A stretch of DNA of 18,412 nt, taken from Gemmatimonadota bacterium. GTDB lineage: Bacteria > GCA-2686955. The notes under the pieces were generated by a model that saw only the letters and a list, made by a program, of their open reading frames with translations, had not been told where the DNA came from and did no database searches. Shown piece after piece: positions 3,648 to 14,478 of the stretch. The position numbers and the translations under genes were made by a program. Every line of letters begins with the position of its first letter. Positions within the stretch are counted from its first letter, which is position 1. The DNA is taken from positions 1 through 18,412 of the forward strand of contig NYZA01000080.1 in the NCBI GenBank assembly GCA_002686955.1, in the 5' to 3' direction.

Positions 3648-3957
3648 AGTTCTGAAGCTCCAGAAGTTGGTCGAAATCGGGGGTCCTCCCCCTGTGTAGC
3701 GTTACACGGCTCCATCCTCGAGGTTTGGGGTCCACTCAACCGTAACGCCGCTTGAGTGAGTCTTCCGCGTCGCATCGGTCGTTTGCCTAGTTGGGTTTGG
3801 CCAACGCCTTACGCGGACAGCCGTGCATTATATCACATCAAGAGCGGGGGATGCCTGTCCTTCTTCATCCATATCGATCGATGCCCCGCCCCGGTTCCTC
3901 GCATTCCGGGCCCGATGGTATGCTTCTCTCCAGACCGATCATTTCAGAGGGATCGCG
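3648..3957. promoter_or_regulatory. Divergent intergenic region with three small inverted repeats
   Basis: This 310-nt non-coding stretch separates two divergent genes for exported proteins and must hold both promoters. It contains three compact inverted repeats on the lamin-tail-gene side: GGGGG-TCCT-CCCCC (3679-3692), GTGTA-GCGT-TACAC (3694-3707), and CACTCAA/TTGAGTG with a 12-nt spacer (3733-3758). They could be operators or 5'-UTR hairpins. An AT-rich patch (CATTATATCACATC, about 3826-3839) could contain a -10 element for the plus-strand gene. An AGAGGGA ribosome binding site lies just ahead of the ATG at 3958. I could not fix a -35/-10 pair with confidence for either direction. Confidence 0.4.
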
Positions 3958-5310
3958 ATGAAGCCATCGACCCGCAATCCGACCATCACCGTCGGGGCAC
4001 TGACGCTCGTCGCTTCAGCGTACGGCACCATTCACCACGTCCCCGACTCCTACCCCACGATTCAAGGTGCGATCGATGCCGCCGCCGACAGCGATACGGT
4101 CCTCGTGCGGCCCGGCACCTACCTGGAGCGCGAGATCGACTTCAGGGGACGCGCGATCACCGTCACCGGAAGCGCGCCGACCGACTCGCTGATCGTGGCC
4201 GGCACCCTGGTGGACGCCGGGGGTGAGGGGACTGTCTTCTACTTCCACACCCTCGAAGACAGCTCGAGCGTGCTCCAGGGGCTCAGCATCACGGGTGGGA
4301 ACAGCCCCTCCTACGACGTGCGCGGCGGTGGAATCACTTGCCGTCCCGATTCCTCGCCCCGAATTCGTCGCTGTATCATCCGCGACAATGTTTCGGCACA
4401 CCACGGCGGCGGAATCCGCTGCTTTTTGGCCGCTCCGGTGATCGAGGAGTGCTCCATCGAGGGGAATCTGGGGGCGAACGAGGGTGGAGGGATCCACTGC
4501 GATTGGTCCAGCCCATCGTTCCGAAACTGTGCCGTTCGCAACAACGAAGCGTCCGTCGGTGGTGGCCTGAGCTGCTTCTGGCTCGCCGAGCCGGAGATCG
4601 TGGGCTGTGTCATCGATTCGAACCTCGCGCTGGATCGAGGTGGGGGCGTGGCGTGGCTCTACGACTCCGGCGGATCGATGCGGCGGTGTGTGCTGCGGGG
4701 GAACGAGGCGGAGAAGGGTGGTGGTGGTGCTGAAAACCAGTCGTCGCCCGAGATCTTGGAATGCCTGATCGAGGGGAATCTGGCGACGGACGGCGGGGGC
4801 TTCTACCTCGATGATGGTGAGCCTCGCATCTCCGCCACGGACCTCGTGGGCAATCGGGCGAATCATGATGGAGGAGCGATGAGGTGCCTTGCCTCGACGA
4901 CGCTGACCGATTGCACACTGATCGACAACAGTGCTGGGTCGAAAGGAGGAGTCGCCGCTATCGGTGTATACGGGAACTCCGGTTCTCTGTCGATGGACCA
5001 TTGCACTTTGGTGGGTAGCCGCGCTGACTCTCGGGGTGATGTTTTCTATGCTCACTACGCTGGCGCGACGCTTACGAACTGCATTGTCTGGCACAATGGG
5101 CCAGATCAATTGGCTGAAGGTTATGGCTTCTCGACAAGGATCGAATACAGCGACATCCAGGGCGGCTGGCCCGGCGAAGGCAACATCGATGAGGATCCCA
5201 AGCTCTGCGATGCGGTGTGTTTGGAATGCTGGTCGCGCTCTCGCTTGCTGGGGCCGCGGAGGCTCCGTGGTTCTGCACCGATGTCACCTGGGCCGGCGAT
5301 CGTGTCGTAG
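3958..5310 (+). CDS. Secreted right-handed parallel beta-helix protein, C-terminus probably disrupted
   Basis: A 450-residue predicted exported protein. After a weak signal sequence (1-23) comes the cap motif HHVPDSYPTIQGAIDAAADS, then TVLVRPGTY, which is typical of pectin-lyase-fold surface proteins. Residues 105-405 are beta-helix rungs of about 22-30 residues. Each has a turn such as GGGITC, GGGIRC, GGGIHC, GGGLSC, GGGVAW, GGGFYL or GGAMRC and a C.I..N strand. A 15-nt block is repeated at 4456-4470 and 4768-4782. Residues 405-417 (EGNIDEDPKLCD) are the usual end-of-helix sequence. From about residue 420 the sequence stops looking like the family and instead reads, out of frame, through the start of the next gene. 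The start ATG has a good AGAGGGA site. No catalytic residues are identifiable, so substrate binding or adhesion is only a guess. Confidence 0.82.
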   Translation: MKPSTRNPTITVGALTLVASAYGTIHHVPDSYPTIQGAIDAAADSDTVLVRPGTYLEREIDFRGRAITVTGSAPTDSLIVAGTLVDAGGEGTVFYFHTLEDSSSVLQGLSITGGNSPSYDVRGGGITCRPDSSPRIRRCIIRDNVSAHHGGGIRCFLAAPVIEECSIEGNLGANEGGGIHCDWSSPSFRNCAVRNNEASVGGGLSCFWLAEPEIVGCVIDSNLALDRGGGVAWLYDSGGSMRRCVLRGNEAEKGGGGAENQSSPEILECLIEGNLATDGGGFYLDDGEPRISATDLVGNRANHDGGAMRCLASTTLTDCTLIDNSAGSKGGVAAIGVYGNSGSLSMDHCTLVGSRADSRGDVFYAHYAGATLTNCIVWHNGPDQLAEGYGFSTRIEYSDIQGGWPGEGNIDEDPKLCDAVCLECWSRSRLLGPRRLRGSAPMSPGPAIVS

Positions 5311-7085
5311 GTGGCGGTGGTGATCTGCTGGTGGTGGGATCGATCGATCGGGCGCCGGCGCGGATTCGGATCGAGGGAATGGTGCGGGATCTCGACGCGA
5401 ACCGCGAGCGGTTGGTCGTAGCGGCCGACTGGGCGGGGACGCATTGTCTCGACCCGTGTGCTTCCGGCGTTGAAGTGACCATTCCCACCGGCGACGCCGC
5501 GGTGGCGGTTGATCTCGATGATCGGTTGTTGGTGATCGCGCAGGCGACCGAGGGCGTCGCAGTGTACGATCTTCGCAAAGCGGAGCCGGTGCTGCTGTGG
5601 CGCTGGAGGTCGGGCTCCGAGATCGTCGACGTGGAGCTCGATGGCGACACGATTTGGGCGGTGAGCTCGCTCGGCCGTCTGTGGCGCCTCGAGGCCGGTG
5701 GTGTGCGGGGATCCTGGACGGTCGGCGGCGAGGATGTGCCACCTAGATTCGCGGACACCGAGATCGGAGCTGTGCTGCTTCACGGCCGGCGGGTGCGCAG
5801 TCTGCGAAGCGGAGACGAAGTATCGCTGTCTCATCTGGTGGGCGCGGGCGCCGGGAGGTGGTTCGCCGGCGGTCCCTTGGGGCTCGTGCGCTGGGGAAGG
5901 AACGCCTCCGACTCGCAGCAGGTGTTCCCACGACCCGGTTCTCCGGCATGGGACGTGGACGTGGCCGGAGATCGCATCGCTCTGGCCGCGGGTGCGACCG
6001 GCGTCGCGCTCTTCCGAACGGACGAGCGAGGCGATGCGGCGTGGATCGGCGCGCTCCGCCCCGATGGGATCGATCAGCCCAACGATGTCGCGCGAGGAGC
6101 CCCGGAGAGCGCGCCCTGGGAGCCCACTTTGGTGCAGGTTTCCGCGCTTCCACTGGAGGGAGAGCCGAAAGCGGTGGTCGTCGACGACGAACGCGCTTTC
6201 GTGGCGGCGGGCGAGGGCGGGCTTCGCGTCGTGGATGTCTCCCACCCGCACCATCCCGAAGAGATCGGATCGTACGATCCTCCCAACACACCGACCTACG
6301 CGCACGATCTAGTGCTTCATCGCGACCATCTCATCGCCGCGGTGGGCGGGCCGGACGACGAGAAGATCTTCCGCATTTTCGACGTGGCGGATGGACCGGA
6401 TCCCCTTCTTGTCGCGGACGGTGGATCGAGCCCGGCGATTGTCGTTGGTCTCGACACAGGGGAAGATCGTCTCTACCTCTCCGGCATGGGTGGCGGATGG
6501 ACCGTCTACGGCTTCATCTCGATCTACGACCTGCGCGAGATTGAAGAACCCCGCCAAATCGGAGGTTTGAGCGGAACATCGAGCGGTACCTACTGGGCCG
6601 CCATCACCGTTGATCCCGCCGCCGAAGGGGAGATCTTCTACTGCTACAACGCTCCCTGGCGCCTGTGGACCTTCGATGCCACCTACCCGGCCGACGTCGA
6701 ATACCTCGGCTGGGGCTGGTGGGGGGCCGGCGCGAGCGAGATGGTCATCGCCGGCGACATCCTGCACCAAGCGCCGGGAGGGGGAGCCGGACCCGGCTAC
6801 CGTGCGATCAGGCCTGATCGTGAAGGTTGGTACGAGCTCGAAGCCGAGCTCGATCTCGGCGGGCGGAGGATGAACCGACTCCACGTGCATGGCGATCGCC
6901 TCTACGGCATCGGCGACGACCGTCTCTGGATCCTCGACATCTCCGATACGTCCGCACCCGAGCTCCTGCTCCCACCCCAAATCGTCGTCGGGATCACCGA
7001 TGTCTTCGTCGATTCGGCGGGGTTTATCTATGTGACTATCGCGGGCGAGGGGCTTCGAATCTACCGGCTGTTCCGGCCCAGGTAG
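5217..7085 (+). CDS. LVIVD-repeat beta-propeller protein, predicted secreted
   Basis: A 622-residue protein built of repeated beta-strand units. Units such as LRVVDVSHPHHPEEIGSY (336-353) and LWILDISDTSAPELLLP near the C-terminus match the LVIVD repeat of extracellular beta-propellers. A short hydrophobic stretch (LVALSLAGAAEA, about 5-16) acts as a possible signal peptide, but no basic residue precedes it from this GTG start. In the same frame the open region begins at 5193 and includes an Arg codon (CGA at 5208), so the native start may have been lost or may be a non-standard codon. No Shine-Dalgarno sequence is visible for 5217 or for the alternative ATG at 5226. The first 94 nt overlap the end of the upstream gene. 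LVIVD proteins are usually surface-located and of unknown function. Confidence 0.8.
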   Translation: MFGMLVALSLAGAAEAPWFCTDVTWAGDRVVGGGGDLLVVGSIDRAPARIRIEGMVRDLDANRERLVVAADWAGTHCLDPCASGVEVTIPTGDAAVAVDLDDRLLVIAQATEGVAVYDLRKAEPVLLWRWRSGSEIVDVELDGDTIWAVSSLGRLWRLEAGGVRGSWTVGGEDVPPRFADTEIGAVLLHGRRVRSLRSGDEVSLSHLVGAGAGRWFAGGPLGLVRWGRNASDSQQVFPRPGSPAWDVDVAGDRIALAAGATGVALFRTDERGDAAWIGALRPDGIDQPNDVARGAPESAPWEPTLVQVSALPLEGEPKAVVVDDERAFVAAGEGGLRVVDVSHPHHPEEIGSYDPPNTPTYAHDLVLHRDHLIAAVGGPDDEKIFRIFDVADGPDPLLVADGGSSPAIVVGLDTGEDRLYLSGMGGGWTVYGFISIYDLREIEEPRQIGGLSGTSSGTYWAAITVDPAAEGEIFYCYNAPWRLWTFDATYPADVEYLGWGWWGAGASEMVIAGDILHQAPGGGAGPGYRAIRPDREGWYELEAELDLGGRRMNRLHVHGDRLYGIGDDRLWILDISDTSAPELLLPPQIVVGITDVFVDSAGFIYVTIAGEGLRIYRLFRPR

Positions 7086-8602: not shown

Positions 8603-8750
8603 TGGGGACTCCCTTGTGGGGTGTGCCCGAATCGCCAGTGCAGAGGCCGTGCCTCGCCTGTTCCATCTCTCTTAACGTTCTACGCCATAGTTATTTACAT
8701 ACTATTTGCCGCCTTGTTGAATCGGTTCGAGAAGCCTCGATCGTCCGTCC
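8603..8750 (-). promoter_or_regulatory. Upstream region of the second beta-helix gene with an AT-rich patch
   Basis: The non-coding region ahead of the gene ending at 8602 includes an AT-rich patch (about 8686-8708) that stands out from the GC-rich surroundings. It carries an ATAGT/ACTAT inverted repeat (8687-8691 and 8701-8705). On the minus strand TTCAAC followed after about 14-16 nt by TATGTA or TGTAAA could be a promoter. This is a low-confidence reading based on composition and position. Confidence 0.35.
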
Positions 8751-8781
8751 CGCTGACGCTCTGCTTTACGTGTCGTCAGCG
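8751..8781 (-). terminator. Hairpin downstream of the Fis-HTH gene
   Basis: An 8-bp perfect inverted repeat (CGCTGACG at 8751-8758, CGTCAGCG at 8774-8781) with a 15-nt loop begins 10 nt after the stop codon at 8792-8794. No U-tract follows on the minus strand, so termination efficiency is doubtful. It could instead stabilise the 3' end of the transcript. Confidence 0.4.
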
Positions 8782-8791
8782 CGGCGGACGT

Positions 8792-9395
8792 TCAATCCTC
8801 GTCAGCTCGGAGACCGTGCCGCTCGAGCCGCGCGTACAGGGCGGGACGCGAGATCCCCAAAAAGGCCGCGGCCTTGGTCTTGTTGCCACGCGCACGCGCG
8901 AGAGCCCGCCGAATCAGCACTCCCTCCAGCCGTTCGAAGCATGTGGCGAGATCACCCTCCATCGCTGGAAACCCATCGTCGAGCGTCTCGATGGCCGCAC
9001 CTCGACCATTTCCGGACGCGGCCGGGGTCTTCGCACCGAGATCGCCTCCGTGTTCCCCTCTCCATCTCTCGGAACACCAGGCGATTGGTCACGAACCAGA
9101 GTCCCATGACGATGGCGGTCCGCGCGAAGGCCCGACCGGCGGGATGGGTCGAGGCGTGTCTTCCGACGCTTGCGGCGAAGGTCAGGAGAAGTACGGCCGC
9201 CGAGGAATGAACAAGGATTTCCGAGGGGGCCTGGACGCCGGCGCGTAACTCGGCGATGCACCGGCCGGCCACAACGCTTCCCGCCCCCCAGACGGCGACC
9301 TGATAGGCACGAGCGCGCCGCGATTCCTGCGAATCGCCCGAATACTCCGGCTCGTCCGGGGTCTTGCCGGCCCGGCTGGGAGAGGGTACCTGCAT
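8792..9395 (-). pseudogene. Membrane-segment plus Fis-type HTH regulator, split by a +1 frameshift
   Basis: The ATG at 9395 opens a frame with a polar N-terminus and hydrophobic segments near residues 31-50 (weak), 59-77 and 90-108. The last reads AIVMGLWFVTN and is followed by RLVFREMER. This frame then turns into Arg-rich non-coding-like sequence. One frame over, starting in the same place, the sequence continues as EHGGDLGAK and later GNKTKAAAFLGISRPALYARL, a canonical C-terminal Fis/NtrC helix-turn-helix, stopping at 8792. Start to stop is 601 coding nt, which is 200 codons plus one base. Dropping one G from the G4 run at 9055-9058 joins both parts into a 200-residue protein. It may be a pseudogene, a sequencing error or programmed frameshifting. 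Alternatively, an ATG at 8962 gives a separate 56-residue Fis-like protein. There is no AAA+ domain. It lies divergent to the hydrogenase operon, which it might regulate. No strong Shine-Dalgarno sequence precedes 9395. Confidence 0.65.
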
Positions 9396-9557
9396 CGGTT
9401 TTCGGCGGGTCGCTCTACCTCTCCTACGGCTGCCTCAGCACGAACTCTCTAGGAGGTTAGCATCAACTCCGATCCACGGGTCGCCGTGATCGATGTCGAT
9501 GCGTGACCTTGCCTGCCGCACTCGCTAGACTGCGATACACCATCAGGAGAAGCACCC
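9396..9557 (+). promoter_or_regulatory. Intergenic promoter region of the hydrogenase operon
   Basis: This 162-nt gap between divergent genes must hold the promoter for the whole hyd-hyp operon. It contains an inverted repeat CACGG-GTCG-CCGTG (9475-9488), flanked by GAT and ATC with one bulged base, a plausible operator. TTGCCT (9509-9514) with CGATAC (9533-9538) at 18-nt spacing is a weak sigma70-like candidate. I looked for a sigma54 GG-N10-GC signature, which a Fis-type regulator might suggest, and found none convincing. A CAGGAGA ribosome binding site precedes the hydB ATG at good spacing. Confidence 0.4.
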
Positions 9558-10616
9558 ATGGTCATGCTCTCTAGGGTTCGGCTGGCCGCGTTCATCGACG
9601 CGTTGCGCCGGCATGGCGAAGTCGTGGCGCCGCGCCCGGTTCTCGATCCGCAGGCTTCCGGCGAGTACCGGCGATACGAAGAGCTGCGCTCCGGCGAGCT
9701 ACCGGAGCTCGCACCCGGCAAGCCCGCCCTTCTGCCGGCGTCGCATCTCTTCCTTCCGCCGCGAGAGACCATGCTCTCCTACGAGCTCGAGAGCGGTCGA
9801 TTCACGGAGGTGCTGGACCGGGAGCCACGGGTCGTCATTGGGGTGCCTCCCTGCGAAGCCCACGCCCTGGCTCTGCTCGACCAAGCGCTCTCGCAGGGCG
9901 TTCCCGATCGCCACTATCGGGCGCGCCGCGAGAACGCCACCGTTGTCTCCCTGGCATGCGCCGAACCTTGCTGGGAGCAGTGCTTCTGCCGGCAGATGGG
10001 CACCCATCGGGCCACCGACGGCTTCGACCTGCTCCTGACCCCGATCGACGCGGAGCGCTTCACCGTCGAGACCAATACAGAAAAGGGCGATGCCTTGACC
10101 GCCGAGCTCTCGGGCGTTTTCGCGCCGGCCCTAGATGCGGACCGCGCCGCCCTGGACTCATGGAACGTGCGTTGCGACGCAGCGTTCGGTCCCTCCGAAT
10201 CGTGGTCGGCCGACCCCAGAGCTCTCGTCGAAGACGGAGCCGACGATCCGGTCTGGTCGACCGAAGCCGAGCGCTGTCTCTCGTGCGGCGCCTGTGTGCT
10301 TCTCTGCCCGACCTGCACCTGTTTCGATATGGTCGAGTCGGTCCCTCTCCCCTGTTCCGCCGGCACCCGCGAGCGTTGTCGCGACGGCTGCATGATTCCA
10401 GGGTTCAGCGCGGTTGCCCACGGGGCAGATTTCCGTTCAGACCGAGCGGAACGCCTGCGCCACCGCACACGTCGCAAGTTCGCATATCAGCCCGAACGGT
10501 ACGGTGGCGGCTCCTACTGTGTCGGCTGCGGCCGCTGCCACGCTCATTGTCCCGTCGATATTGGACCGATCGGGCTTCTGAAGGAGCTCGAGAAGGACCG
10601 GGAGGAGGCGCGATGA
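9558..10616 (+). CDS. hydB: Group 3b [NiFe] hydrogenase (sulfhydrogenase-type) beta subunit, 4Fe-4S protein
   Basis: A 352-residue electron-transfer subunit that links the flavin subunit to the NiFe module in cytoplasmic NAD(P)-linked hydrogenases. It also resembles AsrA of anaerobic sulfite reductase. The N-terminal half contains VIGVPPCEAHAL (93-104) and the Cys-rich CAEPCWEQCFC (134-144), conserved in this family. Two 4Fe-4S motifs follow: CLSCGACVLLC (240-250, then PTC) and CVGCGRCHAHC (321-331, then P). Length is normal. The start ATG has a good AGGAG site. It opens the operon and its stop overlaps the hydG start (ATGA). The gene order B-G-D-A is that of Pyrococcus-type sulfhydrogenases and of bacterial group 3b enzymes. 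Whether it also reduces sulfur in this organism cannot be told. Confidence 0.92.
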   Translation: MVMLSRVRLAAFIDALRRHGEVVAPRPVLDPQASGEYRRYEELRSGELPELAPGKPALLPASHLFLPPRETMLSYELESGRFTEVLDREPRVVIGVPPCEAHALALLDQALSQGVPDRHYRARRENATVVSLACAEPCWEQCFCRQMGTHRATDGFDLLLTPIDAERFTVETNTEKGDALTAELSGVFAPALDADRAALDSWNVRCDAAFGPSESWSADPRALVEDGADDPVWSTEAERCLSCGACVLLCPTCTCFDMVESVPLPCSAGTRERCRDGCMIPGFSAVAHGADFRSDRAERLRHRTRRKFAYQPERYGGGSYCVGCGRCHAHCPVDIGPIGLLKELEKDREEAR

Positions 10617-13517: not shown

Positions 13518-14029
13518 TGCCCACCGACCCTCTGGTTCTTTGCATCGGTAACCTCTTGAGGCGCGACGATGGGATCGCCGTGCGATTGGCGGCGGATCCC
13601 CAGTTCATCCGAAATGTGCCGGTACGGGTCGCCGATGCGGGGAACGGCGGTTTCGGCGCCCTGGCGCTGGCTGATGGACACGATCCGATCATCGTCGTGG
13701 ACGCCGCAGAGCTGAGTGGCGAGCCGGGAGATGTGAGGATCGTGCGAAACGAGGAGCTCCGGTCGCCAGCATCGGCGAGCCTCCATGCACCCACGGCCGC
13801 GCTTTTGCAGCGATTCCGAGAATCGCTCTCCCCGGTGCCCCGAATCGTCTACTTGGGCATACAGGGGGCCCGCACCGACCACGGCGCGGAGCTCAGCCCA
13901 GAAATCGCTACATACTATCCCCGAATTCGCGAGCAAGTGACGGTCGCGATCATCGACGAAATCAACCGGCTCGCCCCCGATCACGACGACCGGTCCCATA
14001 CATCTAGAACCGGAGGAATGGCGCGATGA
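13517..14029 (+). CDS. Hydrogenase maturation protease (HycI/HybD/HoxW family)
   Basis: A 170-residue endopeptidase that cuts the C-terminal tail off the large subunit once nickel has been inserted. The N-terminus has the family signature CIGNLLRRDDGIA (9-21) with an acidic residue at the expected metal position. Asp62 (VVDAAE) and His90 (SLHAPT) match the other two nickel ligands known from HybD. Its start ATG shares one base with the hydA stop. Its own stop overlaps the next start (ATGA). The last 20 or so residues are polar and not conserved-looking. Its substrate is almost certainly the adjacent HydA. Confidence 0.9.
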   Translation: MPTDPLVLCIGNLLRRDDGIAVRLAADPQFIRNVPVRVADAGNGGFGALALADGHDPIIVVDAAELSGEPGDVRIVRNEELRSPASASLHAPTAALLQRFRESLSPVPRIVYLGIQGARTDHGAELSPEIATYYPRIREQVTVAIIDEINRLAPDHDDRSHTSRTGGMAR

Positions 14030-14478
14030 TCGATCAAGCTCGCATCGCAAAACTCGAGTGCTTCAGCGCTCTATCATCGGAGGAGCAGCAACTCTTAGCG
14101 GAGATCGCGACCCCTCGAAGTGTCGGCTCCGGCAAGTGGCTCTTCCGCACGGGCCGGCCGGCGACGGAGATCCTTTTCATCGAGCAAGGTCGTGTCGCCA
14201 TCGAGATGGAGCTTCACCATGGCCACAAGGCGACCGTCGCCACCCTGGGCGCGGGTGAGCTCTTGGGCTGGTCCGCCCTTGTGCCCCCCCATATCTATAC
14301 GGCGAACGCTCGCTGTCTACAAGACATGGTGTTGATCTCACTCGACGCCGAGCTACTGCGGGAATCCCTCACCCAGGACTCGCGCCTGGAGGCCGCGCTC
14401 ATGACGACGATCGCGCAGGTTCTTTCGAGCCGCCTCGGCGGGACACGGCAACAACTCGTCAACATTCTGCATACATAA
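14026..14478 (+). CDS. Cyclic-nucleotide-binding-domain protein without DNA-binding domain
   Basis: A 150-residue protein consisting of a single CRP/FNR-type effector domain (about 8-115) and the following helix (about 115-145). It has the typical FRTGRPATEILFIEQGRVAIE segment and the turn LGAGELLGWSAL. The winged helix-turn-helix that makes CRP a transcription factor is absent, and the stop codon leaves no room for it. In the phosphate-binding loop Glu78 is kept, but the Arg-Ser/Thr pair of cAMP binders reads Tyr-Thr (91-92), so cAMP may not be the ligand. Translationally coupled to the protease gene (ATGA). Its place between protease and hypF suggests a sensor or partner for the hydrogenase. 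A role as a protein-binding regulator is inference. Confidence 0.85.
   Translation: MIDQARIAKLECFSALSSEEQQLLAEIATPRSVGSGKWLFRTGRPATEILFIEQGRVAIEMELHHGHKATVATLGAGELLGWSALVPPHIYTANARCLQDMVLISLDAELLRESLTQDSRLEAALMTTIAQVLSSRLGGTRQQLVNILHT

What the first reader, a model, noticed from the sequence alone, without database searches (positions are those of the whole stretch)
8792..9395. Possible membrane-anchored Fis-HTH regulator, broken by exactly one surplus base
Two reading frames on the minus strand abut: one has hydrophobic segments, the other a textbook NtrC-type Fis HTH with no AAA+ domain. Start-to-stop length is 3n+1, and a G4 run lies at the point where coding character changes frame. Removing one G gives a continuous 200-residue protein. 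A membrane protein that ends in a Fis HTH and lacks the sigma54-activating ATPase would be an unusual regulator type. The mRNA could instead be read by +1 frameshifting, or the gene may be decayed.
Basis: partly seen in the sequence, partly recalled or inferred. Interest (0 to 1): 0.6.

Follow-up and report, generated by a model that had tools for sequence, protein, structure and literature searches.

The report
Broken membrane–Fis helix-turn-helix gene
A short stretch beside a hydrogenase operon carries a membrane-protein reading frame and, one base out of step, the DNA-binding tail typical of NtrC-family regulators; it looks like a broken or rearranged gene rather than a new kind of working regulator.

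Summary
On the minus strand a 147-codon frame (9395-8952) with hydrophobic segments meets a second frame that ends in a good Fis-type HTH (Pfam HTH_8, E 3e-13). Genome-trained codon statistics, blind to the G run, place the frame change at 9059-9053; the G4 run is 9055-9058. However, runs of four or more G/C are common here (174 in 18.4 kb), so the G4 proves little.

No homologue of the membrane half was found. The clear relatives of the HTH half are C-terminal tails of AAA+ sigma54 activators; the closest is an intact AAA+ response regulator in the same genome (52% over 63 residues). That match begins upstream of the only possible start of a stand-alone HTH gene, which argues against two separate genes. 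The AAA+ regulators of this genome are open over the stretch examined, but two further orphan HTH_8 tails (contigs C179, C228) also sit behind an abrupt frame change, and another lies at about 5.2 kb in this window.

Best reading: a broken or rearranged gene whose HTH half is the tail of an NtrC-family regulator. An intact membrane-anchored Fis-HTH protein, hidden by a recent indel or assembly error, remains possible. Programmed frameshifting has no positive support.

The parts
9057..9395 (-). Membrane-protein half: 113 codons from ATG 9395 in frame mod3=2, hydrophobic segments at residues 30-48 (weak), 60-78 (clear), 90-108 (moderate)
   Evidence: ORF; codon log-likelihood +19.5 bits; random-sequence test; hydropathy; no family or homologue
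9055..9058 (-). G4 run at the frame change
   Evidence: Sequence; codon-statistics optimum for the switch 9059-9053; but 174 G/C runs of 4 or more in the window
8963..9055 (-). Linker in the HTH frame, upstream of the only start codon of that frame; holds LDDGFPA, matching LADGYPP of the own-genome AAA+ paralogue
   Evidence: codon log-likelihood +8.0 bits against -8.2 in the membrane frame
8792..8962 (-). Fis-type HTH (PF02954), ending at the stop codon 8794-8792
   Evidence: Pfam E 3.2e-13; PF02954 match 8819-8935; codon log-likelihood +18.0 bits for 8795-8962
8952..9055 (-). Out-of-frame continuation of the membrane frame to its stop (Arg-rich, not coding-like)
   Evidence: -8.2 bits over 8963-9055

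Best explanation
This is a broken or rearranged gene. Its 3' half is the linker and Fis-type HTH that normally follow the AAA+ domain of an NtrC-family sigma54 activator. That tail now lies, one base out of frame, behind a reading frame for a small membrane protein. As sequenced, normal translation makes the membrane frame with an Arg-rich tail and stops at 8952; the HTH is not made as part of it. Shown: the two coding frames, the place of the switch, the HTH family, and an AAA+-bearing paralogue of the HTH half. Inferred: that the lesion is real in the cell, and that it arose by deletion or rearrangement from an activator gene rather than by a one-base insertion in a once intact membrane-HTH gene.
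For: The clear HTH relatives are tails of AAA+ proteins. The closest, G000:C171, is an intact 517-codon response-regulator/AAA+/Fis gene; 52% identity over 63 residues, beginning upstream of ATG 8962. The tblastn match from C171 residue 395, after the AAA+ domain, begins at about the frame switch. Two other HTH_8 tails in this genome without an intact AAA+ domain also follow an abrupt frame change: C179 and C228. The AAA+ regulators recovered from the genome are open through the AAA+ and HTH over the stretch fetched. Another abrupt change of coding frame lies at about 5.2 kb of this window. No homologue of the joined protein was found, though relatives are few.
Against: No AAA+ remnant is detectable in 8700-9700 outside the linker/HTH match. 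None of the genome's AAA+ regulators examined has a clear N-terminal membrane anchor (two have one weak peak each), so the membrane half is not explained as an activator's own N-terminus. Both halves keep good coding statistics, so any break is recent or the sequence is in error.
Confidence: 0.55

Rival explanations
1. In the cell the gene is intact and encodes a 200-residue membrane-anchored Fis-HTH protein without AAA+; the surplus base is an assembly error or a very recent mutation. It would be a one-component regulator that binds DNA from the membrane without sigma54 ATPase activity.
For: Coding statistics continue on both sides with one switch point, 45.8 bits for one switched gene. Joined, it gives 200 residues without a stop. 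No AAA+ remnant between the halves. Transmembrane regulators with over a hundred kinds of DNA-binding domain are described (PMC10269533).
Against: No homologue with this architecture in the roughly 400 different genomes searched or in the 85k-species peptide-pattern scan. Non-AAA+ Fis proteins in sampled relatives are Fis-like or receiver-Fis, none with a membrane part. No ribosome-binding site close to ATG 9395. Single-sequence AlphaFold model is poor outside the HTH (mean pLDDT 54.6).
Confidence: 0.22
2. Two overlapping genes: a membrane protein ending at 8952 and a 56-residue HTH protein starting at ATG 8962, translationally coupled.
For: The frames overlap by 11 nt, a common coupling geometry (general knowledge).
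Against: 8963-9055 is coding-like in the HTH frame (+8.0 bits) and not in the membrane frame (-8.2). Homology to the C171 paralogue reaches at least 11 residues upstream of ATG 8962. There is no ribosome-binding site before 8962.
Confidence: 0.12
3. The mRNA is read through by programmed +1 frameshifting near AGG-GGA, giving a membrane-HTH fusion in regulated amounts.
For: One-base offset, a fairly rare AGG codon (6.9 per 1000) and a GGAGAGG-like stretch at the switch.
Against: No stop codon at the shift site, no close match to the prfB-type signal (general knowledge), no conserved relative, and G4 runs are frequent.
Confidence: 0.03

Closest known systems
NtrC-family sigma54 activators (bacterial enhancer binding proteins), own-genome paralogue G000:C171
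   Same: Linker LxDG[FY]PxM and Fis-type HTH, 52% identity over 63 residues
   Different: No AAA+ ATPase and no receiver; a membrane frame stands upstream, one base out of frame
RegA/PrrA-type response regulators and Fis
   Same: HTH_8 without AAA+
   Different: Those have a receiver or the Fis N-terminal part and no membrane segment; examples in relatives were intact
Transmembrane transcription regulators (ToxR, CadC; PMC10269533)
   Same: Would share membrane anchoring plus a DNA-binding domain if the frames were joined
   Different: No family relation shown; frame broken; whether HTH_8 occurs among them could not be read (supplementary table not available)

Membership tests
NtrC-family sigma54 activator | C-terminal Fis-type HTH | tested here: met
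   PF02954 E 3.2e-13
NtrC-family sigma54 activator | AAA+ sigma54-interaction domain (Walker A, GAFTGA) | tested here: not met
   No match to the C171 AAA+ in any frame of 8700-9700; no Pfam hit in the membrane frame
Transmembrane transcription regulator | Transmembrane segment and DNA-binding domain in one uninterrupted chain | tested here: not met
   The halves are in different frames; one segment above Kyte-Doolittle 1.6
RegA/PrrA-type regulator | Receiver domain before the Fis HTH | tested here: not met
   No receiver match; the upstream frame is hydrophobic
Programmed +1 frameshift gene | Conserved shift site with stimulatory signal | tested here: inconclusive
   No homologue available to test conservation

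The most novel reading that the evidence does not exclude
An intact membrane-anchored Fis-HTH regulator without AAA+, divergent from a NiFe hydrogenase operon and controlling it from the membrane, in a phylum with only two genomes held here.
Probability: 0.1. Interest if true: 0.45.

Novelty: new member of a known kind. Interest (0 to 1): 0.2.

Why it matters
If it is only a broken gene, it is a small case of regulator-gene decay and a warning that one-base offsets in GC-rich draft genomes can suggest new architectures. If an intact version exists, it would be a membrane-bound one-component use of the Fis HTH without the sigma54 ATPase.

Tried and rejected
Homologue searches with the membrane half: 60 and 386 genomes and the genome-contig scan gave only chance hits, and 7 genomes of the phylum of the Eisenbacteria locus gave none. 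HTH-half searches gave almost only AAA+ proteins. The joined protein had one plasmid match, HTH only, and HTH-end matches in NCBIfam, PHROGs and the PDB. Sigma54 promoter scan: 4 matches against 5 expected, none in 9396-9557. Relative G001 has the hydrogenase genes, but its contig holds only 270 bases upstream of the first gene, so the divergent position could not be compared. Structure prediction from one sequence was poor, so no fold search was made.

Full report
Observation. The minus strand holds two open frames that meet at about 9057. The first (mod3=2) starts at ATG 9395 and stops at 8952; the second (mod3=1) ends at 8792 and contains a Fis-type HTH. With codon frequencies from 36 genes of the same genome, the membrane half scores +19.5 bits in its frame and the HTH half +26.0 bits in its own; the best one-base switch is at 9059, 9056 or 9053, without any use of the G4 run. 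No random sequence of the same dinucleotide make-up in 20,000 was open and as codon-like as the membrane half. So both frames are probably coding, and the frame change is real in the sequence as given. The antisense in-register frame can score almost as well as true coding in this genome, but the plus-strand frame in that register has a stop here and a lower score.

One gene or two. The only ATG, GTG or TTG of the HTH frame is 8962, with no ribosome-binding site before it. Coding character in the HTH frame, and homology to the C171 paralogue (LDDGFPAMEG against LADGYPPMDG), extend upstream of that codon. The part upstream of 8962 therefore once belonged to the HTH protein. Adding the segment scores, two overlapping genes reach about 29 bits against 45.8 for one switched gene. 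This makes two separate genes unlikely.

Origin of the HTH half. The best matches in hundreds of genomes are AAA+ regulators or fragments of them, so far as they were inspected. The nearest is an intact response-regulator/AAA+/Fis gene on contig C171 of the same genome. Around the window no trace of an AAA+ domain is left. In sampled relatives, HTH_8 without AAA+ occurs as Fis-like proteins and as receiver-Fis proteins, never with a membrane part.

Origin of the membrane half. It has no family and no homologue. The phylum is represented by two genomes only, so absence of homologues is weak evidence. One segment is convincingly hydrophobic, two are moderate. AlphaFold from the single sequence draws three long helices before the linker, but with low confidence.

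A pattern in the genome. A scan for HTH_8 found 28 matches. Those with an AAA+ domain are open through it and the HTH (some only over the stretch fetched). Short-frame matches were inspected: two are cut by contig ends (C1, C44), one is a transposase-like HTH (C22), and two, C179 and C228, sit behind an abrupt change of coding frame, as here. A further abrupt frame change lies in this window at about 5.2 kb. Orphan Fis tails in this genome thus tend to be remnants or junctions. This is the main reason to prefer a broken or rearranged gene over a new regulator type; it rests on three cases, and assembly faults could also produce it.

Recoding. Nothing positive speaks for programmed frameshifting: no stop codon at the site, no conserved relative, and G4 runs about every 106 bases.

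Context. The locus lies divergent from a hydrogenase operon starting at 9558: an iron-sulfur subunit, an FAD/NAD subunit, a small subunit, the NiFe large subunit, a HycI protease, a cNMP-binding protein, HypF and HypD. A regulatory link is conceivable but untested. No sigma54-like promoter was found between the two genes.

Known kinds. Transmembrane transcription regulators are widespread and use over a hundred kinds of DNA-binding domain (PMC10269533), so even an intact version would be a variant of a known kind. Whether HTH_8 is among those domains could not be checked.

Noticed in passing
window 5100-5320 (+): Coding character jumps from frame mod3=1 (beta-helix-like gene 3823-5310) to frame mod3=0 (LVIVD-repeat gene 5217-7085) at about 5210-5240 with no gap; the downstream gene's start lies inside the first frame. 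Looks like a second junction or frameshift in this contig.
   Followed up: partly
L121 (G000:C179:5000-7000), about 640-955: An orphan HTH_8 tail of 49 residues follows a strongly coding upstream frame, with a +1 frame switch between them; no AAA+ domain.
   Followed up: partly
L120 (G000:C228:1-2000, minus): TPR-like coding frame followed, in another frame, by the C-terminal part of an AAA+ domain and HTH_8, without the Walker part: a probable truncated activator gene.
   Followed up: partly
window 14026-14478 (+): Stand-alone cyclic-nucleotide-binding protein of 150 aa within the hydrogenase operon, with no other Pfam domain found.
   Followed up: no
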